A stretch of 64,000 nt of DNA from the NCBI RefSeq assembly GCF_032854445.1, contig NC_088304.1, forward strand, positions 29,829,732-29,893,731, in the 5' to 3' direction. Below the pieces are notes generated by a model. The model was not told the DNA's origin. It did not search any database and saw only the letters and a program-made list of their open reading frames with translations. A program made the translations under genes and the position numbers. This document shows, one piece after another, positions 6,171 through 46,400 of this stretch. This stretch comes from Liolophura sinensis. Its lineage: Eukaryota; Mollusca; Polyplacophora; Chitonida; Chitonidae. Position 1 is the stretch's first letter. Each line of letters starts with the position of its first letter.

Positions 6171-6280
6171 ATTTATTTGATTGGCGTTTTACGCCGTACT
6201 CATGAATATTTCACTTATACGATGTTGGGAGGAAACTGGGCATTAGCAGGTTGCTGGCAGATCTTCCCAGGTACGTGCTG
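6171..6280 (-). mobile_element. Family A SINE fragment
   Basis: Plus strand ATTTATTTGATTGGCG, TTTTACGCCGTACTCATG, then TTGCTGGCAGATCTTCCC; the middle is deleted. Confidence 0.75.
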
Positions 6281-7319
6281 GTTATAACAAACTGTTATAA
6301 CAAAAAAAAAACTATAACAAAAAGGCATTTTGCCTTTTATGGTTTTATTTATTCCAGCTCTTTATGTAAATGTTTCAATAGTACATGTAGCCACCTGCAA
6401 ACCCCCTAGCACCATGTTATATCGTCGATTTGGACTGCTATCCTTAAGACACTCACATTCGTCCGCTTGACACCCATTCTACATTTAGATGTCTGCCGGG
6501 CATGATTGTATTGGTCGTTGGTTGACGCCATGACAGCTCACAGTCTAGGTCAATTATAAATAGGGAACGCTAAGACAAATGTAATTACGGGCTTGTTTTA
6601 TTACTTTGTATGTGTGTAAGAAGCTGTTGTCCGACGTGACCTATACGTGTACACAAATTATTGATGCCACAAAACCATCCGTCCATTTTAAAAAGTTATG
6701 CTTGGAACCTTAAAACTTGAAACCTTAATCTGTTTAAATTTACATAATACTACATATATGTTTTCTGAGTGATGGCAGAATTGATTGTGCCATTGCTACA
6801 AAATATTACGCTGTTACAAAGGATTATGTTATATTGTTTTAATGTTGTTCAGCTTTTCCAACAGTAACGGTATTTATCAGATCAGTTTCAAGTTTCAACT
6901 TCCTGTATCAAAAAGTAAGCACTTTGACTGATTTTTAAGTTATGACTCAGGGCAGAAATGCATGGTATTGTTAAATCGACCCCCTGGACGAGCATTGTTT
7001 ATTGGCATTCAGTAACCACGCATACAAGACATTCTAACTCTGCATAAAAACTATATTCCATGAATTTACAGTGCATGGCTGCAATGACAGGGACTGCTTG
7101 GGAATCATAGCCATTTATTATAAACTGATAAACTGTCAAATAAAGAGTCATTCCGATCAAATCACTATTTTCATACGTCTGTTCAAAGTGTTTCCTGGAC
7201 ATGTATACGTAGTATAGTTTCAAACAATTCACGAATAGACTGAGCACGTTATGCAGACGTTTTTCCTGTCGGTGGACAGAAACCATAGTTATCCCAACAC
7301 TGCGAGTGTCAACTTTCAT

Positions 7320-8090
7320 GTTATTATATGTTAATGTTTCGACAACACAGCATTTTTAGTAATTCTAGATCAATGGTGTCTAAGAAATTGCTGTTAACAT
7401 CACCGCATTTGTTTACCTAATTTTGACCACGTCATTTAGCTGAGAGGGCGCATACGAAACTCTAACTGTGAGAATTGACAGGAGACCCGATATCACCGCG
7501 GTTACGTGTGACCATATGTCGTCGCTGCTCTGGTTTTACTCTACATGCTGTAGCCGTATTTCACCGGTTACGTGTGACCATTTGCCAGCTATCACACTGT
7601 CATTGCTGCTGTGGTTTGACTCTCTATGCTGTAGCCGTATTTCACCTGTTACGTGTGACCATTTGCCAGCTATCACACTGTCGTGGCAGCTCTGGTTTTA
7701 TTCTCTATGCTGTAGCCGTATTTCACCAGTTACGTGTGACCATTTGCCAGCTATCACACTGTCATCACTGCTCTTGTTTTACTGTCTATGCTGTAGCCGT
7801 ATTTCACCTGTTACGTGTGACCATTTAGCTATCACACTGTCGTCGTCGCTGTTCTGGTTTTACTCTCTATGCTGTAGCCGTATTTCACCAGTTACGTGTG
7901 ACCACTTGCCAGCTATCACATTGTCGTCGCAGCTCTGGTTTTACTCTCTATGCTGTAGCCGTATTTCACCAGTTACGTGTGACCATTTGCCAGCTATCAC
8001 ACTGTCGTCGTTGCTCTGGTTTGACTCTCTATGCTGTAGCCGTATTTCACCGGTTACGTGTGACCATATGCCAACTCTCACACTGTAGTC
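7320..8090 (+). mobile_element. Dispersed element with an internal 81-bp array (eight units)
   Basis: Left part 7320-7480 (CAGCATTTTTAGTAATTC, AATGGTGTCTAAGAAATTG) is followed by 81-bp units: CTATGCTGTAGCCGTATTTC, ACCAGTTACGTGTGACC, ATTTGCCAGCTATCACACTG. Unit starts at GTTACG: 7501, 7567, 7648, 7729, 7810, 7891, 7972, 8053. Related copies lie at 19590-19815 and 35540-35795. Because 81 is a multiple of three, two frames stay open; they are not genes. Confidence 0.85.
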
Positions 8091-13011: not shown

Positions 13012-14783
13012 CTGTTGATGGATCTCTATTGCTATCTTATGCTAATAGACCATAGTGGCCCAGATCACCACGATATGGCTGAAATATTGCCGATGCGGCG
13101 TTCGCCCGTGATCATTCATTCTTTCGCAGTCTAGACACACTATAGACAGTGTGCAATTCGTCAGTCCATGCAGAAGAGCAGTATAAAGGCCAAGATTTCG
13201 CTGTTCCAATGTTCGAAGCCTATGTGAACTGATCTAGCCTTTGGTTCTAGCGTATCAAAAAAGAAAATTGGATTGCATACTGTTCCTCTGTCATGTCTAT
13301 TTAATACGGACTGATATAACTTCTGTATCAAACGTTGACCAGAATCTGCAGCCTCACCTTGTAATGCATCTGCGTATAACGTTTTTTTTTTTAGTCCAAT
13401 GTTTTCTACTAAGTTCGGATTATAAACTTCGATTTAAGTTCATCCTTTTGGTATGAACTTTTGACCACCAGTAATACGTCGTGTGTCAAATCTGTCATCG
13501 TGTTTTAACGAAGTCTCATCCGTCATCTATAATTGCTATTCTTTACTTTTTCCTCCTCCGGCTCAATTCTCTCAATACTTTCTCTTCCTGATGCCAGAAG
13601 CAGGTCTAAATAGCATCATTTTATCACAGATACCGGTCTTTTTGTACAAGGCACAGCTCCCAGCAAACAACCCGACCCAGTTTTACTGTATAATGTTACT
13701 TCCACTTCGTCTCTAGTCCATAAATTCCATCACAATTACCTTGGCAACTGCCGATGTAATGTGGGGGTCTTCGCTCTCTGGGTACATGCTAACGACTGGT
13801 CCACTCAACACGTATAGAGTGTCCCTCGCACGAAAACTCCACAGAATTGGCAGACGCTGACCATTGTCTGAACATAGCAATAAGCCATCCCGAGGCAATT
13901 ACTTAAAGATGTTATTTTTATTTTTTTCCAGACTCCATGTCAATATGAACTGAAAACTGGTCCTGACGGAAAACGATCGAAGCCCACGTATACGGATATT
14001 GGGAGACAGCGCGGGAGACCAGATTGACGCAGAAAGGTTACAGAAGTGTTTGGCTGGCATTCATGCCATACAGTCAACATCCCGATGGGTTAACGGATGA
14101 TGTACATTCCTGAAAGATTAGCCAGTCATACATCAGTGAAATTCCTCGATCTGAGATATACGCCGCTGGCGACAAGTTCAATACGCATAGGAGAGAGAAT
14201 ACCTAAAGTGCGGGCACTCTAATATACCCCGGACTTGGAGAGCTCAGTGAACTCCGGCAACGGAATTGTATTAAGTGACGGAGACATTTGGATGTGATAT
14301 ACCCTTAGGGGATATTGCTCGCACTCGGCATTCCTCGATGCTTGGTTATTTACACACGACGTGAGTCTTGAATTTTCTTGGCCATTGTTTACGCCGACAG
14401 AAAGTTACAACGGGGCGCACCGCCCCGTGGCTTCTGCCTAAAACGCACTGTGCTCAACAAAAAAGTGTCATTAAACCGTAGCCTTGACATGCTTCTCGAC
14501 TTTTATGTATATGAGACTTTTACATGTTATTAGGGGAATACGCGTTGAGAATGCAACGTCATGTTTTTTTTTAACTGAATGTACGGGCTTGGTGTTTAAG
14601 GAGAAAATATACATGAGTCACGTGAAAACGAATTCTGCGCCCGAAGAGACCAAGCTTTTTCGAAATATCGTACTTTAACCATCAGGCTATGTTCAAATTC
14701 TGGAATTGTACATATTACGCATGTGCTGTGCTTAAGTGTTACATATAGGGGTTGTGTGAAGGGAAGATTGGATTACATCAAAA
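13012..14783. other. 5' flank of the GPCR
   Basis: No exon or repeat recognised apart from the hairpin at 14410. It presumably holds the receptor promoter and 5' UTR. Confidence 0.5.
14410..14428. other. Perfect 8-bp GC hairpin upstream of the GPCR
   Basis: ACGGGGCG, a 3-base loop CAC, then CGCCCCGT form a perfect inverted repeat about 355 bases before the GPCR start codon. It stands out in AT-rich surroundings. Function unknown; it could be 5' UTR structure or a binding site. Confidence 0.5.
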
Positions 14784-15968
14784 ATGGCGAAGCCCACCTT
14801 TCGTAATGTGTCTCACAATCAGACGCTTCTTGAGGCTCTGGACGCGGAAAGGCTTAAGTTTCTCGGTCCTGTGATTGGCTGGATCGTGTTTCTCATGATC
14901 GCTGGTCTCCTTGGAAACGCTCTAGTGTGTTACGTTCACGGAAAGAAGATTCAGCGTTCCACGGCGAACAACTTCATCCTGTGGTTAGCGACTCTGGATC
15001 TGTTCACGTGCTTAGTAGGCATGCCCATGGAACTGCTGGACATCACTCGCAGCTACACTTTCGACAACCCCGCTCTGTGTAAGGTGATGCGCTTCGTCAT
15101 TTATCTTGGCGTCATGACCTCTGTGGCTACTTTGGTATTCATAGCCATGGACAGGTATTTTAAGATTTGTCACCCTCTCAGGGTGTCGCCTATACGCCGT
15201 TGTAGACTAGTCATTTTCCTCTCCCTTTGCGTTGGCCTTCTTTTGGCCTGGCCTTCGCTAGTAATCTTCGGGCGCAAAAAAATGCGGGCACCCAAACAAT
15301 ATCCACGTATTTATGGCGTGGACTGCAGTATTGATGACAAACTCATACACACCGTGTACCCGACGGTGTACTTCATTATTCTGGGCACAGCGTTCCTTAC
15401 GGGTGCGACTGTTCTCATACTGCTGTATGTCATCATAGGCCGAAAGCTGTACCGGAGGAATCGTCGTCCCATTGGTGAAGATTTGTCCGCATACGACAGC
15501 AAGGCGGCCATGATTGTCCGTCTGAACTCTAGTGGCGTGAAGGCGAGCGCCGTGCCTCGGGACTCACTACAAGATTCCATCAAAAAGAAGAAGCGAAAGC
15601 GCGATAACAGGTACAATGTTTCGCGAACCAGCGCGATATTCTGTACCATCAGCGTGGTGTTCGTGATGAGTTTTCTTCCAAGCTTGGCCCTGATGACCAT
15701 GAGCACGATTTCAACATCGTTCACCGAGACTCTTTCACACGGACAGTACGTCGTATTTAGCCTCTTCCTACGGACATATTTTATTAATAATTGCGTCAAC
15801 CCAATAATCTACGGCTTTCTTAACCAACAGTTCAGAAAAGAGTGCCTTAAAGTGTTCAGAAGTTGTCTCTGCAGAGAGTCTGAAAATGACACCGAAACCT
15901 CAAATCATAGTGTGAATAAAATGATTCGCTATGTTAAAAACGGATCTATGACGAACAGCGCGACGTAA
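14784..15968 (+). CDS. Class A (rhodopsin-like) G-protein-coupled receptor, single exon
   Basis: An uninterrupted 394-codon frame encodes a seven-helix receptor. Visible landmarks are: N-glycosylation sites at N8 and N12; helix 1 with GN at 44-45; helix 2 with LATLD (D72); the C99-C181 pair expected to bridge helix 3 and extracellular loop 2; MDRY at 122-125 closing helix 3; a long basic third intracellular loop (about 219-280, KKKKRKR at 267-273); helix 6 with SFLP at 296-299; NPIIY at 339-343 closing helix 7; and CLC at 361-363 as a likely palmitoylation site. The helix 6 CWxP motif is changed (SFLP). The first ATG gives the normal short extracellular N-terminus. It should sit in the plasma membrane and couple to G proteins. 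Overall pattern is that of peptide-type receptors, but ligand and subfamily cannot be named. The lack of introns is common in lineage-expanded GPCRs. Certain as a GPCR, uncertain as to type. Confidence 0.95.
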   Translation: MAKPTFRNVSHNQTLLEALDAERLKFLGPVIGWIVFLMIAGLLGNALVCYVHGKKIQRSTANNFILWLATLDLFTCLVGMPMELLDITRSYTFDNPALCKVMRFVIYLGVMTSVATLVFIAMDRYFKICHPLRVSPIRRCRLVIFLSLCVGLLLAWPSLVIFGRKKMRAPKQYPRIYGVDCSIDDKLIHTVYPTVYFIILGTAFLTGATVLILLYVIIGRKLYRRNRRPIGEDLSAYDSKAAMIVRLNSSGVKASAVPRDSLQDSIKKKKRKRDNRYNVSRTSAIFCTISVVFVMSFLPSLALMTMSTISTSFTETLSHGQYVVFSLFLRTYFINNCVNPIIYGFLNQQFRKECLKVFRSCLCRESENDTETSNHSVNKMIRYVKNGSMTNSAT

Positions 15969-19568: not shown

Positions 19569-22500
19569 CTATTGAATAAACAAGAAGACACAATATAATT
19601 AAAGACATACAGCGTAGGAGATTAAAACCAGAGCAGCGACGACAGTGTGATAGACGTACATCATAGAGAGTAAAACCAGAGCAGCGACGACAGTGTGATA
19701 CACGTATAGCGTAGAGAGTAAAACCAGTGCAGCTGGCAGTGTGATAGCTGGCAAATGGACACACGTAACCGGCGAAATACGGTCTCTTGTCAATTTACCA
19801 CAGTTAGGGTTTATTCTAATTGCTCCAGTGGCCTAATGGTTAGAGCGTCCGCCTCGAAATCGGGAGGCCCGGGATCAAACCCGCATTTCGAGTCATACCA
19901 AAGACTTTAACTATGACACTTGTTGCTGTCTCGCTAGGCTCTCAGCGTAAAGGGGCTAGAACAAAGAAACAGAACTGGTTGCTCCAGTGTCACTATAATG
20001 TGACTGGGTTGGGTGTCATGTCTGGTGTCTTCGGCATGATACTTCAGTGAAGGCAAGACTTTGGTGAGATGGCCTCGCCCTGCCAAAAGCAGACACACCT
20101 AATGATTCCTGGTCGTTATCTGACTGAAAAATTGTTCCCTATTGTTAACTGTTAAACCCCAGGCATTCATTCATTCAGTCTTTAATAAAATGAACAAAGT
20201 TTCTTCACCATTAACATTTTCATAGCAAAAGGTCCCTAAAAATCGAAGTAGGCATCACTTACAACCATTCATAAATATACTTTCATTAATGTGGACCATA
20301 CTATCAGAGGTCAAGAAAGCTGACGTCCACCTCTAATTATGACACTGAATTTTGGAATAACTCTTTCTACCCATGAGTGAAAGATTACTGAAATAATGTT
20401 TCCAAAAATTCCTTCCTTCTGGTTAACATCACGAAAGATGGTGATATGACGTAAGAGTTCCTAGATACCGTCAGTATGGTTCATAAAGCCCACCAAAGTT
20501 TTGAAATATTTTAACGCCTTTCAACACTCTTTTAAAACAATCTGAAAAAATAAATGAAAGTATTTTTACGCATACTTTAAAGCTGTCTGTATGAAAAACT
20601 TCATATTTTAGCTTTCTTTTACTTTAAGTACCGTCAAACATTTGAAACTTCACTAAATCAGATCAATGTTAACAAATAGAGTTAAAATACTGAGTGTATA
20701 TCTGTACATCACACGTGATAAAGTTCGTCAGTGTTTCCCAATGGCCGGTGGTTTATTCCTGATACTCCAGTTTTCTCTACACATTAAATTGACGGACATC
20801 CTATAAGTAAAACAATTTTTGAGTACGGTAGGGCGTTAAAGAACAATCAGACGAACAAATATATAATCAATCTCCATAGCTCAACGAGTGTATAATGAGT
20901 GTTACTTCACCTGACAACCCGACTCCAATGACGATGTTTTTGCATGCGGGACTTAGCTTCACCTGAGAACCCGCCTCCTATGGCGATGTTTCTACAGGCA
21001 GGGCTTAGCTTACCCAGTGTAAAATGTGTGTTACTTCACCTGAGAACTCGGCTCTTATGGCAATGTTTCTACTGGCCGGGCTTAGCTTACCGAGTGTATA
21101 ATATGTGTTCCTTTACCTGAGAACCGAGCTCCTATGGCGATGTTTCTACAGGCCGTGCTTAGCTTACCGAGTGTATAATGTGTGTTACTTTACCTGACAA
21201 CCCGACTCCAATGACAATGTTTCTACATGAGGGACTTAGCTTCACCTGAGAACCCGCCTCCTATGGCGATGTTTTACAGGCGGGGCTTAGCTTACCGAGT
21301 GTATAATGTGTGTTACTTCACCTGAGAACCCGGCTCCTGTGACGATGTTTCTACTGGCGGGGCTTAGCTTACCCAGTGTATAATGTGTATTACTTTACGT
21401 AAGAACCTGGCTCCTATGGCGATGTTTCTACAGTCGGGGTTTATCTTACCCAGTGTATAATGTGTGTTACTTTACCCGAGAACCCGACTCCTATGAGGAT
21501 GTTTCTGCAAGCGGGGCTTAACTTACCGAGTGTATAATGTATGTCACTTTACCTGAGAACAGGGCTCCTAGGACGGTGTTTCTACAGGCGGGGCTTAGCC
21601 TACCGAGTGTATAATGTGTGTTACTTTACCTGACAACCCGACTCCAATGACAATGTTTCTACATGAGGGACTTAGCTTCACCTGAGAACCCGACTCCTAT
21701 GGCGATGTTTTACAGGCGGGGCTTAGCTTACCGAGTGTATAATGTGTGTTACTTCACCTGAGAACCCGGCTCCTGTGGCGATGTTTCTACTGGCGGGGCT
21801 AAGCCTACCGAGTGTATAATGTGTGTTACTTTACCTAAGAACAGGGCTCCTATGGCGATGTTTCTACAGGCGGGGTTTAGCTTACCGAGTGTATAATGTG
21901 TGTTCCTTTACCTGAGAACCCGGCTCCTATGGCGATGTTTCTACAGGCGGGACTTAGCTTACCCAGTGTAAAATATGTGTTCCTTTACCTGAGAACCCAG
22001 CTCCTATGACGATGTTTCTACAGGCGGGGTTTAGCTTACCGAGTGTATAATGTATGTTACTTTACTTGAGAACCCGGCTCCTATGACGGTGTTTCTACAG
22101 GCGGGGCTTAGCTTACCCAGTGTAAAATACGTGTTCCTTTACCGGAGAACCCAGCTCCTATGACAGTGTTTCTGTAGGCGGGGCTTAGATTACCCAGTGT
22201 ATAATGTGTGTTACTTTACCTAAAAACACGGCTCCTATGGCGATCTTTCTACAGGCAGGGGTTAGCTTACCGAGCGTATAATGTAACGTGTATTACTTTA
22301 CCTGAGAACCCGGCTCCTATGATGATGTTTCTATACCTGGGATGGCGATCCAGGACAAAATGGTGATCCGGCGTCATCTGGGGATATCAAACAACGTGGT
22401 ATTATTGCCTAGGTACAGTGTAAGGCCTTTTGTCTAGGATCGCAATATGAGTCTTGAGGACAGAACAGTATAAGATGCCTCTTTTTTACTAAACCCTGGG

Positions 22501-25500: not shown

Positions 25501-28500
25501 TATACAGTTGACGCCTTTCTTCCAATTACACAACAATACTTTTTCCAAAATGACTGTATTTCTTGTAGTGCTTTCAGTATGAGAGTTGATACAAGTGTGG
25601 TGGTACAAATTATTCCTATATATGGGGATTTATGCCTTTTTGAAATCCAGTATAAGGTTGTGGTGCTAGTATATCGTTGTGACACGAAGGTACAGATCAA
25701 CTCCTTTCTTCTGAGAAAGGAATAATGTTTTCTTGAATGGTTCCACCAGCATGGGCGCTGAACCAGATGACGATGGTGATTAGAGGAAACAGGTTTGCCC
25801 TGAGTAAAAACTGCTCTTCGTCAGGCAGCTAACAAACCGTCTGACTTAGGGCTGCGTTACTATATTATACATCAAATTAAGTTTATATTTTACCAGTTCA
25901 CCATATATGTCACATCCCAGCCATTTACATACAGATCAAGTCCAGCTCATGCTGGCTTCCTCTCCCGGCCGTACATGGGAAGCTCCGTCAGCAACCTGCG
26001 GATAATCGTGGGTTTCCTCCGGGCTCTGCCCGGTTTCCACCCACCATAATGCTGACCGCCGTCATATAAGTGAAATATTCTTGAGTACGGCGTAAAACAC
26101 CAATCAAATAAATAAATAAATAAAATTTACATATATAAGAAGGATATATTACAGGAGGCATACAAAGGGTTTACGACTGCATTCGAGCGCCTGTGGATTT
26201 GGCTTACTCTTCATGCTTATCTGACAAAATAAGTCTTTTTCTTTCTTTTAAGCATACCTGCATGGTGAAGATGACTTCTAACTGTGATTCTTACCACGTT
26301 CACCTCTTTCCCTCTCACCTTCAATGGTAAGGAGAGTCCAAGATCCTTCAGTATCTTGTTAGTCCATGGACCAGCCGTAATGATGACACTCCGGGTTTTG
26401 TATCTGGCCCTGGACGTCACAACCTCGGAAATATCGGCCGGAATTATTCGTAATACTTTATCTCCATCGTTTAACACGCCACCTCGGCACCTGAATACAG
26501 TCTGAAACACATGCAATGACATAACATTTTATCGGCTATGTGGTCTGCAAGTTTGTCAACAGATTTAGTCATTGGCATTGTCATCTATTGCGTAAATGGT
26601 TTTGAATAAAAGCTTCAGTTTCTTACAGCTAAGCTTCAGTGCGATATCCCAGTTCATTACAATGCTCCTTCTTTTCTAGTCTGACTGGTTGTTCTGTAAG
26701 GTATGAGCTGCGTTCCATTGGAGTTGGTGTTCTGGATGGGACTCTGATGTGATCACATTGGGCTGATTTTCCATCTAATCCTTTTACTGAGGCCTTGTGC
26801 TCTGCAATTCTGCAATTGTTGCCAGTTCTTGACACCACTCACTCTCTTACTGTATATATGTTGACTTGTATCTCTGTACGTTCATACCTCTGAAACTAAC
26901 CCAGAGGTTATCTGTGACCAGGAAACCTTCCTCAAACCAGGAAATAACCCCAACAACAAAATCAATATCCCCGGCAATAAAGCATACAGATGTGACAGAT
27001 TACAAGATAGATTGGGTGGAAATCTTATCATTGTCAAGGAAAACATTGTACACCCGTACATGGGCTCTAATAAGGTAAATTGACTTGCTTGAATGGCAAG
27101 CTATTCTAATATACCACGACAATAAAACCAGTTCACATTATAAACCTATACTCTCCCGGAAGTAGGAGGAAAATATCCAATATTAGCTCGACAATATTAT
27201 TTTCATGTTCAGCCCTAGTGCTATTATCTGCGGCGATTTCAATAGCCATAACCCTTTATGGGATGCAAAGTGTAAACATAGCGACAATCGTGGTAACACA
27301 GTACAAGTATGGTTAGAGGAACACAACCTAGTCTACTTAAGCAACGGCGAAAGAACAAGAATGAACTTCGGCACAGGCAACACCTCAGCAATAGATCTCA
27401 CTATTACCACACCTGATCTCGCCCCTAAAGCAGGCTGGAATGTTATACCAGATGCACTCGGGAGTGGCCATTTCATTATCATGACAAAACTTGGTATGTC
27501 ACCTAAATCTTGAATTAAATCTCAACAACTCCAAATTTCTGTTCCACAAAGCAAACTGGGAAAATTTTAAGAAAGTTTGTCAAAATATATTCAATGATGG
27601 TGACTGCCTCTCCGATATAGACCTATTCTACCAAAATCTTATTGATGATTTACTCAGGATTGCAGAACAACACACTCCTATTTCCTCCCAGCATAGAAGA
27701 CCTGCAAATCCTGTTCCATGGCGAAACAGTGAATGCGCTGCAAATATAAGAAACCAAAAAAGAGCACTGCGTAAATTTAACAGAACCAGATTACATAGAG
27801 ACCAAGAAAAATACAAACACCTAAAAACTGAAGCTGTCTCTCCTGCCAAAGCCAAATACTGGGAGGACTACTGTGAAACACTTGATACAAAAACAAATTC
27901 AAAGCAGGTATGAAACAAACTTAAACTTATACAAGGCAAAACCATCAATCAAATCCCAACTTTGGATCGCAAACACAAAATCAACGAAAAAGCAGAATGC
28001 CTCGCAAAAACCTTCGCAGAAAATAGCAGCGATCAAAACCATAATCCATCTTTTAAACTAATCAAGGATAACACATTTCTACAGCTAGAGCCCGACGATC
28101 ACGTTGAACATTATCTTAACAAAGATTTCTCCCAACAGGAATATCACAAAGCCATTCACTATAAAAAAAGAAACCTCACCAGGCGAAGAAAAATTAGGCT
28201 ACAAAATCCTAAAACACTTACGGCTAAAAACACAAAATACAATACTGGAACTCATAAAGACAAGTTGGAGAAAAAAAACAGCTGCCACAAAGACGGAAAT
28301 CGTCCATTGTTATTCACGTCCAAAAACCCATCAGATTTTTCCTCCTATCGCCCAATATCACTCACCTCATGCCTATTTAAGCTTATGGAAACTATGGTCA
28401 AAACAGACTAGAATTTCAGCACGCCAAAAATAAAATACTACATGAAACACAAAATGGAGTTAGAAAAGGACGTAGTACGTACATACATACGATACTGAAA

Positions 28501-31500
28501 AAGCCTTCGTCCTCGTTTGGCAGGATGGAGTACTACAATATACCCCAATTCGATTTAGCAAATGCAAGTTTAGCAAATGCAATAGATGGTAACCATCCAA
28601 AAATAGAGCAGTCACTATTTGCTGACGATGCAGCAATATGGAAAACAGGCAAATCTATAAAGAAAATAAAAAATGCTATACAGAAAACACTAAACACCAT
28701 CTCGAACTGGGCCAACCACTTGGGATTTAAATTTTCACCCACTAAAACAACAGGTATTGTCTTTACAAACAGAAGAAAAGTGAATATTGAACTTTTCTAA
28801 GGTAAAAAGAAAACTGAATTCAAAGACAAAGTGAAATACCTGGGCATGATTCTTGATAGCAGATGGAAAGATCATACTGATGACCTCACAATCAGATGCC
28901 AACGCGATCTCAATCTAATGAGGCGCATTTCAGGCTGGGGAGCCAACAAAACCACACTCATAAAAATGTACCAGTGTCTAATTAGCTGAAAAAATAGACT
29001 ACGGTGCAATAGTCTATCAATCCGCGTGCAAAACAGGAGCTTTCAAAGGCACTTCGCTGTGCAGTCTCCAAGTAGAAACACTTGAAAAACCCCTTCACCT
29101 CAGAAGAGAAAAACTAACCCTCAAATATGCAGGAAAAATAAGCGCTTACGGTGATACACATCCATGTTACAATCTAACTCTCCCATATTCTGAATATGAA
29201 TATCTGGGGGAAAAATGAACAAAACCCTCAGCCCCAAAGGCTATGATATCAACAGACTACTTTGCAAATATGTCATTGCCTTGCCAAAGCAACAAGAAAA
29301 CGCATATCAACAAGCCCGTTGTTATTGCATAAACCCCAAATAGACACTGCACTCCACGACCAAATTTCAAAACTCAATAATCCAGTACATATCAAAGCTC
29401 AAGCCCTAGAATACTTCCACAAGCACTACAACGTTCATCCAATGTTCATACTGACGGATCCAATAATGTGCAGGGTCACAGTAGATCATCATTCGCAATA
29501 CCAGAGCTAAACATAGTTAAAAACTATAAATTACCCAACGACCTCTTCGTCTATATCAGTGAATTAGTTGCAATTAACAATCAGTGAAAAGAGGCGATAC
29601 CCTGTTAGAGGCACAGGCTTCCAGTACGCTGATTTTTCCTGGATGGCGTCTGGCATAAGTGGCGGGAGCACCAGCAAGAGAATAAAACTGTTATCCAATA
29701 AATAAAAGCACTACTGTTGTTTTCTGTCTGGGTAAATTTCTGTGTAGGCAACTCAGTGTAATTCTGTAATGTTGATCTATGTATTTCTAATGTCAAGATG
29801 ACGTAAATATCCCCTTTCTGTTAAATAACCATGGCAGCATTTGAACCTATACAATAAGCTACATACATACTACTATAAAAAGGATTAATTCCAGTAATTG
29901 ACTCATGTACATATGTAAATAGTATACCAACGCACTGTAATTTCAGTGCTGGTAATTTTGTGTGCTGTCAGCGCGGACTTCATTGAAATCGGCCCCATCG
30001 AGTTGGAGTGCAGGTGTGCGGCGACTTGTTCGAGAGGTGGCGATGGACTCAGTGTTAGGATGAATGTCAGAATATTACAATAGCACACTGAGTACACCTG
30101 GAAGGATTTACTGTTTTGGTGTGATATGCCGGTGTTTTCTGAGTCTTAACTCAGCACGACTTAGAGATTTATTTATTTATTTGATTGGTGTTTTACACTC
30201 ATACGATGATACGGCCAACATCATGGTGAAAAACCGGGCAGAGCCCTGAGAGGTTTCTGAGTAACTGTGCCGTGCTGGCATGCTAACCACTCGGCCACAC
30301 AGGTCCCTGAAGATCTAGAGATGGGGACCCACCTGATAGGCCAATACAGCAGCGCTGGCCCACAAGATTCCCGCCGTGTGGTCCAACACCCCTTCGTAGT
30401 TGTCCGGATACGAGAATTGTGGGTAGCGTTTGGTCATCTGCGCGTGAGACAGTCTTTCGTGCGAGCAGTTCGTCTGCTTCAGAGTGACGTCAGTCTCCTC
30501 CAGACACTGGCTACCCTTCTTCCCAACGACAAGCAGTCCTGTCCGTCTAGAGTTGTAAATAAAGTACGTAAAAGGGTTTTTAAAAATTCTCATCCATTAT
30601 TGGCTTGTTCCTGCTTGTCCACCCTTACGCAATTATTTAGTTTCCAACCAGCGATCTTATATAGGTCAGTATATCCACATGTACCCTTTATTAAAGGTCA
30701 TTTGAGTCAACATCTGCGTATTGGTGACAGTTTGTGTCAGTAAAACATAGCAATATACCTCTAACTTTTGTCCGAAATACATTTTGAAGTTGTGGATTTA
30801 TTGTTTGTATGTACACACACTTAATGACTTCTCGTCGTCATATGACTGAAAAAAAAACCCCTGTTAAGTACGACGTTAAACCCAGGCATACATACATAGT
30901 TATTGTTGGTGTTTAATGCCGTACAAAAGAAGTTTTCACCTGTACAATGACAGTCATTCATAAGGATGGAGGAAACCCGATTGCGCGCCGGTAAACCAAC
31001 CGACAAGTTACTGACAAATTTTCTCAGAAGGCACCCATCAACTTATATGCCATACTGGTGGAGGTCATGTGGTAACACTTCGCAAACGAGCGCCGACCAT
31101 CTTTTCTGTCACCAAAACCACATGAAACAGTGAGAGCAGGAGAATAGCAGTTTGAATGGCATTCTTTTACATTGAGCACCAAACGACATCAACACCAACC
31201 ACAGATTCAAGCTTAATTTTGTAGCTTTTATACAGCCGCTATAGTTCACGTCAATTTCTTTTACCTGTAGAGGGAGGTCCCACTCTCCCTTTCTAGACGG
31301 TTCCATGCCTCAAGAGCCTCATCCGTCATGTTGGCATAAAACTTCTGCGGGTAGGCCTTTCTGAATCCACGGGACTGTCCGTGCGAGCTCCCCCTGGTGT
31401 GCGGCAAACGAAACTGCCAGAATGAAAAAATATACATACATGATGGGCACGTAAAGCTGCAGAATTTTTAGAAAGCTTCATCTTCATTTTGTTAAAATAA

Positions 31501-40069: not shown

Positions 40070-40281
40070 ATGAGGTTCCAAAGTTAAGAATCCACACAAC
40101 CTCCCAAGGTTACCTGTCCACACAACCTCCCAAGGTTACCTGTCCACACAACCTCCCAAGGTTACCTGTCCACACAACCTCCCAAGGTTACATATCCACA
40201 GTACCTCACAAGGTTACTTATCCACACAACCTTCACAGCTTAAGTATTCACTTGACATTCCCCAGGTTAAGTATCCAGGTC
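40070..40281 (-). repeat. 26-bp tandem repeat beginning at the Deltex stop codon
   Basis: On the minus strand the last codons and stop (GGATACTTAACCT) head a series: GAATACTTAAGCT, GGATAAGTAACCT, GGATATGTAACCT, then GGACAGGTAACCTTGGGAGG several times, spaced about 26 bases. Copies become more alike away from the gene. It lies in the presumed 3' UTR. Confidence 0.8.
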
Positions 40282-40482
40282 AGACTCTGTGACCCCCTGC
40301 ACTGCTAATTCCATCAGGACATTGTCTATGTACTTGGGGTCAGGGTAGCCATGCCCGGTGGAGTTAGAACCCAGCTCTGTCTTGTGATGGATCTCATTCC
40401 ATGTCACTGTGTCACTCTCACCGGTCGTCGTGGATTGGCCTATTGTGAATGTCAGTCGACGTTTCCAGGCAATGATGAGAAG
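40267..40482 (-). CDS. DTX (DTX1/DTX4-type): Deltex exon 9 (C-terminal domain, stop)
   Basis: Encodes [41 protein letters not shown] and ends DLDT with TAA at 40269-40267. The in-frame acceptor is TTTACAG|CTTCTC. The better-looking acceptor 8 bases earlier (GTTCCAG|GTTTACAG, start 40490) would encode the expected VLQ lead-in only if one more T were present. The acceptor region continues into a 60-bp tandem array and the stop codon into a 26-bp array. Confidence 0.92.
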
Positions 40483-43400
40483 CTGTAAACCTGGAACATG
40501 AGAAACATGGGTAGATATGGTACAGAAAGATACCACTGTTCTTACACGAAGAAATGCAACATGAGAAACAAAGGTAGATGTGGTACAGAAAGATACCACT
40601 GTTCTTACACGAAGAACGGCAACAAGAGAAACAAGGGGAGATGTTGTACAGAAAGATACCACTGTTCTTACACAAACAACCGCAACAAGAGAAACAAGGG
40701 GAGATGTGGTACAGAAAGATACCACTGTTCTTACACAAAGACCTGCAACATGAGAAACAAGGGTAGACGTGGTACAGATAGAAACCACTGTTCTTACACG
40801 AAGACCTGTAACATGAGAAACAAGGGTAGATGTGGTACAGAAAGATACCACTGTTCTTACACAAAGACCTGCAACATGAGAAACAAAAGTAGATGTTGTA
40901 CAGAAAGATACCACTGTTCTTACACAAAGACCTGCAACATGAGAAACAAGGGTAGATGTGATACAGAAAGATACCACTGTTCTTACACAAAGACCTGCAA
41001 CATGAGAAACAAGGGTAGATGTGGTACAGAAAGATGTCACTGTTCTTACACAAAGGCCTTCAACATGATAAACAAGGGCAGATGTGGTACAGAAAGATAC
41101 CACTGTTCTTAGACGAAGACCTGCAAAGAGAAACAAGAGTAGATGTGGTACAGAAATTGGTACAGAGATTGTTGATACTCTGACAGTTCTTAACGATGAC
41201 ATCAACAGAAGACATAGTACATGTATTATCACAAGAAGTTTACCATAATCTAACACATTTGCATTTCAGATGCACCTTACCTTTCTTCCATCCTCATTAT
41301 CGGGCAAGAATCCGTATCTGGGGAATCCCCGCGCTGTAAACCGCTTTCCTGGATGAGGATGCTCGGGACCCTAAAACACAGACACACAATCCACTGCAAG
41401 TAAACCCACAGGTACATGTAGGCTTAATAAATCAAATCAGGCCACTAGGCTTAATAATAATCTAAAATAATGCCATTAGGCTTTAATAATGATCTCAAAT
41501 CAAGCCACTAGGCTTAATAATGATCTAAAGTCAAACCACTAGGCTTAATAAATGATCTAAAATCAAGCCACTAGGCTTAATAAATGATCTAAAATAACAA
41601 TACGATTTCAACGATATGTAAAATTTGAGTGCTGATAGTTACAGGCGAGCCAGCATGAACCCACAGCGACCGCACTGGTGAGAGGCTCCTGGGTCACTGC
41701 GCCGAAATGGCACACTAACCATGGATTCGGAGTACCAGGATTAAACCACTAGTATTTGGCAAGTAACTGAGAAACTTTCCCAAAACAGACGCATACCTGA
41801 GTGCCTGGTCGAATGTCATACTTGATCTGTATAGTGCCACAGTTGGGGAATGTGGGCAGATGGTTTGGCAGTATGTCATACTCCATCTCCCCCTTTGGAC
41901 AGTTCCCGCACTTCTCCCCATAGATCGTCTTACAGCTTGGACACTGTACACTCCCGTCCTGGAAAGAGGCAAGTACCACAAAAGAATGTTAGATCTAATT
42001 CTGAAGAAATGAGGAACATTGCCTCCTTTAGTAATAAAACAAGTCAAGCCAAGGAGTTTTATAAGCTCTTTGCGTGTTGAGAAGGGTATACAGGAATTTC
42101 CTCATATACTCTTCTCAATACGCGCATATTATTGTTTTGTCCCTATAATATTTATTAAATAGAAAGCCAGTCTCGAGAATATGTAAAACTGAGCTAAGAA
42201 AAATCATGCTATTTATGTCGACTGCAGAAAGCAATGGTATAGTGGCATAACATCACAATGACGTGCCATAAAATGCAGTGTTACAAAGAAAAATTACATT
42301 AGTCTGCACAGTAACTTAGCTGCGCAGGGTATAAATTTAGCACCACAAAATAAAAATGCCGCCAATCTGCTTAAATTTCATATACTGTCTGTAGGCATGG
42401 CCTTCAGCTCTGACAAGTGTATGCCAACATTTTAATACCAATAGCAATTGAGAATCATGGATGATATAGGAACAAACTCTTCTGTTCTATTCTGTATGAA
42501 TTTCGCCACTCTTTCTGATTAATTCAGTAAAATAGGGTGATTGAAATATCATGAAATAAGCTTATGTGTTTACATCTATATTGTTTTTTATACTACATTG
42601 TTTGGTGACACAGGTTTCATCGAGGGGGGGGGGGTCTCAGTGTCTATAAGACACGCTATTTTGACGAAATAAACATGGAAGAGAGAGAGCGAAATACGAT
42701 GAAAATTGAAAATGAGACGGTCTGATCTATGTTTGGCGGTGTGTCAATTGTTTCACCTAACCTTTTCACAATGAACTTACCTTCTGTCCACACTCATACA
42801 TTTCATGGAGACAGAGCTTGTGGAACATATGAGAACATCTCTCCAGTCTGTACACAACACAATCATTGCCATTGCTACAGTAGCCCGAAGCTTGGCTCAA
42901 CTTCTCACAGCATATACAACAGTCCTGTGTGAGAACAAATACAACAGTCCTCTGTGAGAACAAATACAACAGTCCTATGTGATAACAAAAACAGTCCTGT
43001 ATGCAGTATCCCTGTGTGAGAGCAATGAAAACCAAAGCTTGTACATATACAACAGGTCTCTGTAAGAGCAATGAAAACCAAATCTTGTACATATACAACA
43101 GTCCTGTGTAAGAGCAATGAAAACCAAAGCTTGTACATATACAACAGTCCTGTGTAAGAGCAATGAAAACCAAAGCTTGTACATATACAACAGCTCTCTG
43201 TAAGAAAGAGGAAAACCAAAGCTTGTACATATACAACAGCTCTCTGTAGTGTAAGAGCAATGAAAACCAAATTTTGTACATATACACCATTCCTGTGTCA
43301 GAGCAATGAAAACCAAAGCTTGTACATATACAACAGCTCTCTGTAAGAGCAATGAAAACCAAAGCTTGTACATATACAACAGTCCTGTGTAAGAGCAATG

Positions 43401-46400
43401 AAAACCAAAGCTTGTACATATACAACAGTCCTGTGTAAGAGCAATGAAAACCAAAGCTGTACATATACAAAAGGACTCTGTAAGAAAAAGGAAAACCAAA
43501 GCTTGTACATATACAACAGCCCTATGAGCAATGAAAACAAAGCTTGTACATATAACACAGCCCTGCGTAAGACCAATGAAAACCAAAGCTTGTACATATA
43601 CAACAGCCCTGTGTAAGACCAATGAAAACCAAAGCTTGTACATATACAACAGCTCTCTGTAAGACCAATGAAAACCAAAGCTTGTATATATATAACAGCC
43701 CTGTGTAAGAGCAATGAAAACCAAAGCTTGTACATATAACACAGCCCTGCGTAAGAGCAATGAAAACCAAAGCTTGTACATATACAACAGCTCTCTGTAA
43801 GACCAATGAAAACCAAATCTTGTACATATACAACAGCTCTCTGTAAGAGCAATGAAAACTAAAGCTTGTATATATACAACAGTCCTGTGTGAGAGCCCTG
43901 AAAACCAAAGCTTGTACATATACAACAGTCCTGTGTAAGAGCCACGAAAACCAAAGCTTGTACAATACATGCAGTCCTGTGTATTAAACATCAAAACCAA
44001 AGCACACACTATACACAGTCCTTTGCCAGAACAATCAAAATCAGAGCTTGTACATATACAATAGTCTTGTATATGTAGGGCTGTTGCTATATGAGGAAAT
44101 TACTTAAAAGTAATATCTTTAAAGCTTGATCCTTTTCATTTACCAAGCGGTATACTGATGATCTACTGGCGTTAAATAACCCCCATATTGCTGAAGCAGT
44201 GAAGGAAACCTATCCGCCTTCATTGGATTTAAAGGAGACAACAGATAGTCCTGATGGTACATCTTATTTGGATCTATATCTGTACAAAGACGAACAAGGT
44301 ATCCTTTCACGCCGCCTTTACGACAAAAGGGATAATTTCAATTTTTTTTGTAAATTATCCTTATTTGGATAGCAATATACCAAAGGGTCCTGCAGTTGGC
44401 ATATACATATCTCGCCATGTAGCATTTGTCTGATCTTGTGTTAATTGTGATGACTTTAATCTGTGTCACAAGTTGCTAGTTCAAAAACTAGTTTGTCAAG
44501 GATACTCCATCAAACGCCTTCATTCTAAGTTTCTCAAATTTTACAATGAGTATAACACTCTTGTTGATCAACCACATAGACGGCGCTGTTATCACTATGT
44601 ACATATCTATCACGTACATGGTATTTTTACAACATAGATGGCGCTGTCTGCCCAGCGTAACCGCTTATCTTGTAGACAACTTTTATACAGCCCAGCAAGT
44701 CATGTGTAACATCACAGATGGCGCCTCTTGTAGTATGAGATCCTTACATATTAACGGGAAAGACCTAATCGTCCGTTACTTTTAAATCACAATCTGTTCG
44801 GTTAAGGTCTGTAACGCTCGTCATTTTCGAACTGTATCTAATACCACTTAACTTGGGGCTAGGGGTCGTAAAGGTAGCCATGCTCATTACGTTTGCATGA
44901 TGCCTTTATGAACAGTTGCAATCAAAGCGTGACTGAGATAATTGTTTAATTGTTATTTGACCTGGAATTCATTCATGGACTACGAATTTGAACTTTGATA
45001 TGGAATTCATGCCTGGAATATTCATTGTCTGCCCGGCATCATTGAAAACTGATGACCGCTTCTCTCTTGTGTGTTACCAGCTTTATTTCCTATTTGTATA
45101 ATTTCTTACATACCTTTGTCTTTGGAAGCTAGTGTTAAACGTTGTTTTGGAAATGGATCTTGAGATTATCAACTTGGAACCCCCCTTTAGGACTACGAAT
45201 GCTATCTGAATGTCTGACATGACGTTTATATTGTGCTTGAAAATCAAAATCACAGCAAAGACAACATTTGTACATTGGAACAATCACAACAAAAAGAGGT
45301 CCTGGAGTGATCTACTAATAAATGCCTAATCTCACCTCTGCCTATGAACCAACCATATTTAACTTCGTCCAGGCACAAAATTCACATCGTCCAGGCTAAT
45401 TGGAATAAATATTCTTAAAACAATGCACACTGACATTAACTGAACGCACATATATGCAGCAGCGCACTAACAAGTTTTAAAGAAAATACATTTCTCCAAG
45501 AAGGTAAGCCTATTGTACATAGTAAACGCGTTGATTCTGTAGTCCCCATTTCAAATCTTTTCGTGGCCACATACAAACACTGCAATATGACCAAGGACTT
45601 CCAGGACAAAAGTCGACAGTTCTGTCAAAAAAAAAAATGGTACCCAAAACTTCTGAATAAAAAGTGTTTATCAGAAAGTACAAACTTGACATACAAAATG
45701 GAGCTAAACACTAACTGATATCACTAATGAGTCACACTTTGCGCACGTGTACATACCTCATCTTTGGGAGGATCTGTGATTACAGTTACAAATTTGGTGA
45801 GCACTTCCTCTGCTGTATTTTCTGCAAATATAAATACAATTCACATGTTGAAAGTACTTGAAAATCTTTCACTCCTTTGAGACCATCAATATATGTTTAC
45901 ACATGGGTGCAACTTGTGCAATATCAAGTACTGGTATCTTACTTTTACTTCTATTCCATTTTACCCTTGTATATGCCTATGATCTATCACTTGATAGTGT
46001 GTGAGAACTGACTTCACACTGTATGGATTAATGGCATGCACTCTCATATGCAGGAGTCAAACTGTTTGGTCATTTACTCGTTTTTAAGACCTTCAAACAA
46101 AAATGATGAACACAAATTGAGCCCAGGTCACCACAAAGATGACTATGAATCATGCAAATATTCATAATTTCAGATACATATATGACTGTTGTGCTTTATG
46201 TTATTCACTGTCTTTAAATGGAATTTTAACACATTTGTCACCCTTGAATCATATTGGATGACCTCAGTTTATGTAGAGTATATCATTCCACAGATCTCCA
46301 AATATCCAATATTTTGCCCCTTAACATGTCTGGTTTATCAGAGGAACATGCATACATGTACATGGGGACATGCAGGCAGTGTTCATATGAAAATCAGTGT

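What the first reader, a model, noticed from the sequence alone, without database searches (positions are those of the whole stretch)
42908..44065. About two dozen copies of a 3' splice site tandemly repeated before the Deltex RING exon
The 46-bp unit holds a pyrimidine-rich acceptor (TTCATTGCTCTTACACAG) and then the first 14 coding bases of exon 6 (GACTGTTGTATATG). The true acceptor is the last member of the series. A gene that must splice exon 5 to exon 6 therefore faces a ladder of near-consensus decoy acceptors. Seen directly. The idea that the array arose by expansion of the intron-exon junction itself is inference. I know of no described minisatellite class of this kind.
Basis: partly seen in the sequence, partly recalled or inferred. 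Interest (0 to 1): 0.88.

Follow-up and report, generated by a model that had tools for sequence, protein, structure and literature searches.

The report
Splice-junction minisatellite in a chiton gene
In a chiton's Deltex gene the boundary between an intron and the next exon has been copied about two dozen times in a row, leaving a ladder of look-alike splice sites; in a small sample of two other gene families about one in twenty splice sites showed the same thing, a kind of array so far reported mainly from a few lancelet genes.

Summary
On the minus strand, intron 5 of a Deltex (DTX1/2-like) gene ends in about 23 units of 46 bp plus three of 25 bp, most carrying an acceptor and up to 14 nt of exon 6; the true acceptor (first exonic base 42924) is the last. 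The junction sequence is local: 12 of 13 genome-wide near-matches lie in the array. Contig lengths identify the genome as Liolophura japonica (chiton, Mollusca).

What looks new is place and frequency. The same window holds a donor-side mirage (PIPOX-like gene, 19 extra donors) and an acceptor-abutting array in Deltex. In 69 myosin and kinesin exons picked without regard to repeats, 7 of 136 splice junctions (5.1%, 95% CI 2.1-10.3%) had extra tandem copies, against 1 of 2,720 shuffled controls. Junctions are not hot spots: 77 of 600 nearby intronic AG/GT sites are repeated too.

Best reading: minisatellites arise throughout chiton introns, some straddle an exon edge, and the exon-proximal splice site keeps being used. 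No RNA data were available.

The parts
43010..44061 (-). 46-bp minisatellite, about 23 units, most with an acceptor plus up to 14 nt of exon-6 start
   Evidence: TRF; units; splice-site scores
42914..42993 (-). 25-bp exon-proximal units (GACTGTTGTATTTGTTCTCACACAG), running into the true acceptor
   Evidence: TRF
42781..42924 (-). Deltex exon 6 (start of the [13 protein letters not shown]...); true acceptor just before 42924
   Evidence: DTX1/DTX2 match
45757..45821 (-). Deltex exon 5; donor GAG|GTATGT, phase 0 with exon 6 (read by eye)
41797..41958 (-). Deltex exon 7, no junction copies
41281..41370 (-). Deltex exon 8, no junction copies at either edge; a 32-bp array (41419-41597) lies about 50 bp upstream
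40489..41156 (-). 63-bp array, 10.6 copies, abutting the acceptor of Deltex exon 9; unit has TTTCTCATGTTGCAG|GTCTT; fails the strict 8-nt exon test
   Evidence: TRF; 6 of 6 genome-wide matches lie here
40267..40490 (-). Deltex exon 9 (Deltex C-terminal domain); acceptor at 40490 or, in frame, 40482
   Evidence: Pfam DTC
20877..22333 (-). 77/52-bp donor-junction array; units repeat about 32 nt of exon end plus GGGTTCTCAG|GTAAAG
   Evidence: 15 of 15 genome-wide matches lie here
22302..22377 (-). PIPOX-like exon (FAD-dependent oxidoreductase) whose true donor begins at 22301, first of the donor series
   Evidence: Pfam DAO (translation joined to the last exon)

Best explanation
The array is a mirage: a minisatellite that arose by local tandem duplication of the segment straddling the intron-5/exon-6 boundary (shown by sequence: 14 shared exonic nt, near-private to this intron) and then grew and diverged by slippage or unequal exchange (inferred). 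It is one of many in this chiton genome, where tandem arrays fill about a tenth of a random sample and repeats are common in introns; those whose unit happens to cross an exon edge copy a splice site into the intron (shown by a small survey). The extra copies lie on the intron side, so the coding sequence is unchanged as long as the spliceosome uses the exon-proximal site: the last acceptor of an acceptor array, the first donor of a donor array. Strength alone cannot pick it, since some decoys score as high or higher, so position must, most simply by exon definition, which favours the closest acceptor-donor pair (inferred, not tested). The array probably has no dedicated function.
For: Array anatomy and exon sharing. 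Confined to the locus: 4 of 4, 15 of 15, 12 of 13 and 6 of 6 matches. The exonic part is conserved coding sequence. Same structure at a donor in the same window, with GT kept in 19 of 19 decoy donors. Survey: 7 of 136 junctions with extra copies, 3 of 68 acceptors and 4 of 68 donors; controls 1 of 2,720 with shuffled flanks, 5 of 1,246 exon-interior AG/GT (all in L070, itself one of the seven), 77 of 600 intronic AG/GT 60-130 nt away. Repeat coverage falls towards exons with no peak at the edge (myosin exons only). Lancelet mirages are reported not to interfere with regular splicing.
Against: No RNA evidence that 42924 is the acceptor used. Decoys are not eroded: AG intact in 23 of 24 Deltex decoys and GT in 19 of 19 PIPOX decoys, in both arrays tied for the best-kept dinucleotide column, which an idle, drifting array would not predict, though recent homogenisation would. 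Against that, the three exon-9 units nearest the exon have lost AG, and two of six relaxed copies in L055 and one of three in L080 are broken. The kinesin sample alone is weak: 1 of 40 junctions, against 6 of 96 in myosins.
Confidence: 0.75

Rival explanations
1. The decoys are used: alternative acceptors add peptide in front of the Deltex RING in a regulated or noisy way, and selection keeps them.
For: Of 28 AGs tested, seven (42951, 42996, 43011, 43059, 43149, 43197, 43521) preserve the frame and are stop-free, adding 9 to 199 residues. The sense strand of the array has 4, 0 and 4 stops per frame against 16, 14 and 14 antisense. Splice dinucleotides are tied for best-kept column in two arrays.
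Against: Of the 28, 16 shift the frame and 5 more meet a stop. The inserted peptide is repetitive and would sit directly before the first RING cysteine. A stop-free 46-mer is not rare by chance (roughly 7%, own estimate, no call). Similar arrays at unrelated myosin and kinesin junctions argue for a general mutational process.
Confidence: 0.12
2. Splice junctions are hot spots: transcription- or splicing-coupled damage specifically triggers tandem duplication at exon edges.
For: Two clear junction arrays, plus one abutting array, in one 64-kb window.
Against: Around 49 myosin exons, 24-mers are repeated at about 10-19% of intronic positions more than 80 nt from the exon edge, falling to 4-8% at the edge, with no peak; intronic AG/GT 60-130 nt away are repeated in 77 of 600 cases against 7 of 136 true junctions. 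The window was chosen because of the array.
Confidence: 0.05
3. Exon capture: an older intronic minisatellite was there first and the exon boundary moved into it.
For: The exon-9 array shares only the acceptor and a few exonic nt with its exon.
Against: In exon 6 the shared bases code for the conserved RING start; in L065, L070 and L080 the shared bases lie in coding sequence matched by the myosin or kinesin family model.
Confidence: 0.05
4. Assembly or collapse artefact.
For: Tandem arrays are error-prone; HiFi depth is only 14x.
Against: Mean HiFi read 8,347 bp is longer than the 1.05-kb array; units differ from each other; the same structure recurs in unrelated genes on several scaffolds. 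No reads were seen.
Confidence: 0.02

Closest known systems
[quoted passage not shown] PMC3087553 and PMC3902484, abstract and passages seen
   Same: Tandem units (10-72 bp in Adh3, about 150-160 bp in globins) spanning a 5' or 3' exon boundary, many but not all with AG/GT signals, the authentic boundary next to the copies.
   Different: Reported there for a few lancelet genes, with RT-PCR suggesting normal splicing and with length or somatic instability. Here: a mollusc, 24 extra acceptors or 19 extra donors in one array, and about 5% of surveyed junctions; no RNA or polymorphism data.
Human CBS 31-bp VNTR c.1444_1467+7(16_21), and CBS 844_845ins68; PMC2630376, passages seen
   Same: By its name the VNTR unit is 24 exonic plus 7 intronic nt (my derivation), so the donor is repeated 16-21 times; ins68 creates two close splice sites at intron 7, of which one is strongly favoured.
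   Different: Single human loci; the VNTR unit is invariably 31 bp and copy number varies among people.
CeRep25B minisatellite near alternatively spliced regions of C. elegans; PMC4039745, abstract and outline only
   Same: Minisatellite over-represented in introns near splice decisions.
   Different: A named repeat family that contains regulatory motifs; nothing in the abstract says that its unit copies the local junction.

Membership tests
Mirage (lancelet-type junction minisatellite) | Tandem head-to-tail repeats of minisatellite size | tested here: met
   46 bp x 22.9 and 25 bp x 3.2
Mirage (lancelet-type junction minisatellite) | Unit contains both intron end and exon start | tested here: met
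   Acceptor plus 14 exonic nt; 11 strict extra copies of the 20-nt junction word
Mirage (lancelet-type junction minisatellite) | Many units carry intact splice signals | tested here: met
   AG in 23 of 24 decoys; 22 AGs at or above the 95th percentile
Mirage (lancelet-type junction minisatellite) | Authentic boundary lies at the edge of the array | tested here: met
   42924 is the last acceptor and is followed by the RING exon; by homology, not RNA
Mirage (lancelet-type junction minisatellite) | mRNA is spliced normally | not testable with these tools
   No RNA data reachable
Mirage (lancelet-type junction minisatellite) | Length instability between alleles or tissues | not tested
   One search finds exon 6 once in the assembly, so no second allele is held
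Mirage (lancelet-type junction minisatellite), applied to the exon-9 63-bp array | Unit contains intron end and exon start | tested here: inconclusive
   Shares the acceptor and a few bases only; 0 strict copies. The unit's GTCTT could be the former exon start (inference)
Dispersed repeat or transposon carrying a splice site | Copies elsewhere in the genome | tested here: not met
   Matches inside the local arrays: 4 of 4, 15 of 15, 12 of 13, 6 of 6

The most novel reading that the evidence does not exclude
In chitons a constant birth of minisatellites keeps thousands of splice sites embedded in ladders of near-identical, undegraded decoys; the decoys are used at low level and kept, so that repeat turnover is a standing source of longer exons and of new introns, and splice-site choice in these genes rests on position, not on strength.
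Probability: 0.2. Interest if true: 0.85.

Novelty: new member of a known kind. Interest (0 to 1): 0.62.

Why it matters
If the survey rate of about 5% of splice junctions holds, this chiton is a natural large-scale test of how the spliceosome chooses among many equivalent neighbouring sites, and of the proposal (made for lancelet globins) that junction duplications seed new introns. It also suggests that mirages are not a lancelet oddity: they occur in a distant phylum, so they may be a general by-product of minisatellite-rich genomes that gene annotation overlooks. The published repeat catalogue of this species puts 'other (simple repeat, microsatellite, RNA)' at 0.08% and 14.04% as unclassified, while TRF covers about 10% of a 200-kb sample.

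Tried and rejected
Hot spot at junctions: rejected by the coverage profile and the intronic control. Very long open frames reported by the genome search for myosin pieces: no sense-strand frame of 150 aa or more in the one stretch fetched to check. Coding-score ORFs in the 200-kb random sample: 66 candidate sites gave four hits: two in L015, of which one, a donor with 8 copies, lies about 3 kb from a Methyltransf_16 exon but its own exon has no Pfam support, and two in a long repeat ORF of L026; none is counted. Arrays near but not including the junction were not counted: L044, L047, L051, L054, L059, L063, L064, L073. The PF00122 search (10 matches) was not used further. Selection on decoy dinucleotides: two arrays suggest retention, the exon-9 array the opposite; left as inconclusive.
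Full report
The array. On the minus strand, intron 5 of a Deltex gene ends in a minisatellite: 22.9 units of 46 bp at 43010-44061 and 3.2 units of 25 bp at 42914-42993. Cut at the acceptor, units read ...GGTTTTCATTGCTCTTACACAG|GACTGTTGTATATGTACAAGCTTT... and exon 6 starts GACTGTTGTATATGCTGTGAG at 42924; 14 exonic bases are shared, then the sequences part. The exon-proximal 25-bp units (GACTGTTGTATTTGTTCTCACACAG) run directly into the true acceptor. A gapless scan finds 25 junction units, of which the true one is the last; one more diverged unit, with its acceptor before 43976, is seen only.

Gene identity. Joined exons 6-9 match PDB chains of DTX1 at 3.6e-84 and DTX2 at 1.4e-80. Pfam finds the Deltex C-terminal domain in exon 9 and a WWE domain about 15 kb upstream on the same strand; the RING exon alone gives only a sub-threshold RING-H2 match. 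The shared 14 bases code for D-C-C-I-C, aligned with D-C-T-I-C in DTX1. The exon is therefore taken as the older sequence and the array as its copy.

Not chance, not a dispersed repeat. The exact 23-mer is found 4 times in 609 Mb, all in the array. With 3 mismatches allowed, 12 of 13 matches of a 24-mer lie in the array and the reversed control pattern has none. The PIPOX donor word has 15 of 15 matches (2 mismatches) and the 63-bp unit 6 of 6 (3 mismatches) in their own arrays. The tool scores best candidates only, so these counts are lower bounds.

Organism. G000 has 632 contigs; its contigs of 96,433,062, 37,343,639, 28,395,274, 27,489,247, 25,057,479 and 19,479,325 bases equal the longest scaffold, the N50 and scaffolds 10-13 of the Liolophura japonica assembly, which also has 632 scaffolds (PMC11068029, passages). 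Two figures differ slightly: total 609,464,459 against 609,495,693, and one contig of 30,099,635 against 30,102,928 for scaffold 9; I take the copy here to be a trimmed release. It is a chiton (Mollusca), assembled from PacBio HiFi reads with mean length 8,347 bp, 14x.

Decoy strength. On a rough recalled acceptor matrix the true site scores 10.0 (99.4th percentile of 3,635 minus-strand AGs); 22 other AGs in the array score at or above the 95th percentile and two exceed the true site. AG is intact in 23 of 24 decoys in register, and the remaining one has an AG three bases on. Strength cannot explain why the last site is chosen, if it is. Of 28 AGs tested, seven would extend the exon in frame and without stops, five in frame with a stop, 16 out of frame.

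Other arrays in the window. A PIPOX-like gene (FAD-dependent oxidoreductase, Pfam DAO; the gene name is recalled) has an exon ending CATCATAGGAGCCGGGTTCTCAG|gtaaag, and the following intron repeats about 32 nt of that exon end with its donor in 77- and 52-bp units: 20 donors in all, GT intact in 19 of 19 decoys. Deltex exon 9 is preceded by a 63-bp array whose units end TTTCTCATGTTGCAG|GTCTT; it abuts the acceptor but fails the strict test. Of its 9 units found by the scan, the three nearest the exon have lost AG. Of 15 candidate junction sites tested in the two genes, 2 have strict extra copies: Deltex exon 6 acceptor (11) and PIPOX donor (16).

Survey. To see whether this is common I took exons from Pfam searches, picked before looking at repeats: 49 of 81 Myosin_head matches, mostly from the top of the list but with some rows skipped (40 stretches), and the first 20 of 132 Kinesin matches that had no internal stop, each with about 250 bp of flank. 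For each edge a script picked the best-scoring splice site and asked for extra copies, on the intron side, of a 20-nt word (8 exonic, 12 intronic) with at most 4 mismatches and the dinucleotide intact. 7 of 136 junctions have them: donors L045, L049, L055, L070 and acceptors L060, L065, L080; 6 of 96 myosin and 1 of 40 kinesin edges. Exonic shares, by eye, run from about 9 nt (L060, L055) to about 115 nt (L070). Prevalence 5.1%, 95% CI 2.1-10.3%. Controls: 1 of 2,720 with shuffled flanks; 5 of 1,246 exon-interior AG/GT sites, all in L070 (Fisher p = 4e-5 against true junctions); 77 of 600 intronic AG/GT 60-130 nt away. The short flanks and the demand for an intact dinucleotide push the estimate down; edges are computed, not RNA-based: 4 of 136 picked sites score under 2, and in L070 the picked donor is probably 4 nt off. 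L045 and L049 lie 2.5 kb apart, so the 7 fall in about 6 genes.

No hot spot. Around the 49 myosin exons, the share of 24-mers with another copy nearby is about 10-19% more than 80 nt into the intron, 4% just before the acceptor edge, 8% just after the donor edge and 0-5% inside exons. Random stretches carry 49 arrays (period at least 10, score at least 80), about 20 kb in 200 kb with some overlap between rows. Junction arrays look like the tail of a genome-wide process, thinned near exons.

Mechanism. Shown: copying of the local junction, confinement to the locus, recurrence at unrelated junctions, decoys with intact signals. Inferred: growth by slippage or unequal exchange; continued use of the exon-proximal site; choice by exon definition. 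Splice dinucleotides tie for the best-kept dinucleotide column in the Deltex exon-6 array (2 tied of 35) and the PIPOX array (7 tied of 37), but rank 30 of 41 in the exon-9 array, and copies are broken in L055 and L080, so selection on decoys is undecided.

Literature. [quoted passage not shown] The original Adh3 paper, known to me from recall and from that citation, is not held. The human CBS VNTR c.1444_1467+7(16_21) is a donor-spanning case (PMC2630376, passages). I saw no mollusc or genome-wide report among the rows listed by the searches (20 of 30; 15 of 15; 10 of 99; 8 of 426; 1 of 1; 0; 15 of 187); the library holds open-licence papers only, so absence from print is not shown. In the chiton genome paper's main text the words minisatellite, intron and tandem are not found. 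Plants and green algae are reported to have more tandem repeats near intron-exon junctions (PMC3887541, abstract passage), unlike the profile here.

Verdict. The new points are a mollusc, two clear cases and one probable in one window, and a measured frequency of about 5% of splice junctions in two gene families. Extrapolation to the genome (thousands of junctions) is inference.

Noticed in passing
window 40482-40490 and 41280: Exon 8 ends in phase 0 but the strong exon-9 acceptor (40490) gives a frame one base short; an in-frame acceptor 8 nt on (40482) would drop three residues (VLR in DTX1). Either a one-base assembly error, a real deletion or a shifted acceptor; the 63-bp unit's GTCTT fits an expected former exon start (inference).
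   Followed up: partly
window 41419-41597 and 19603-19747: Further minisatellites 35-50 bp upstream of acceptors (Deltex exon 8, PIPOX-like last exon) that do not include the junction.
   Followed up: partly
window 7517-8090 and 19603-19747: An 81-bp and a 48-bp array about 12 kb apart share the stretch TGTCGTCGCTGCTCTGGTTTTACTCTCTA on opposite strands (by eye): perhaps a dispersed minisatellite-bearing sequence.
   Followed up: no
window 43010-44061: The sense strand of the 46-bp array has 4, 0 and 4 stops per frame against 16, 14 and 14 antisense; a 374-aa open frame covers it (42975-44099).
   Followed up: partly
window 14760-15965: Single-exon rhodopsin-type receptor gene (Pfam 7tm_1, 1.9e-34).
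   Followed up: no
window 27187-28797: LINE-like endonuclease and reverse-transcriptase reading frames in pieces (by eye).
   Followed up: no
L023 (G000:C5:5000001-5010000): Pieces that look like a Polinton/Maverick element (DNA polymerase B, integrase) by eye; observed only.
   Followed up: no
L015, reverse strand 6183-6297: Possible donor mirage in a random stretch, about 3 kb from a Methyltransf_16 exon; 8 copies of the donor word, exon not confirmed.
   Followed up: partly
whole genome: TRF gives about 10% tandem arrays in a 200-kb sample, while the published repeat catalogue has 0.08% in its 'other (simple repeat, microsatellite, RNA)' class and 14.04% unclassified.
   Followed up: no
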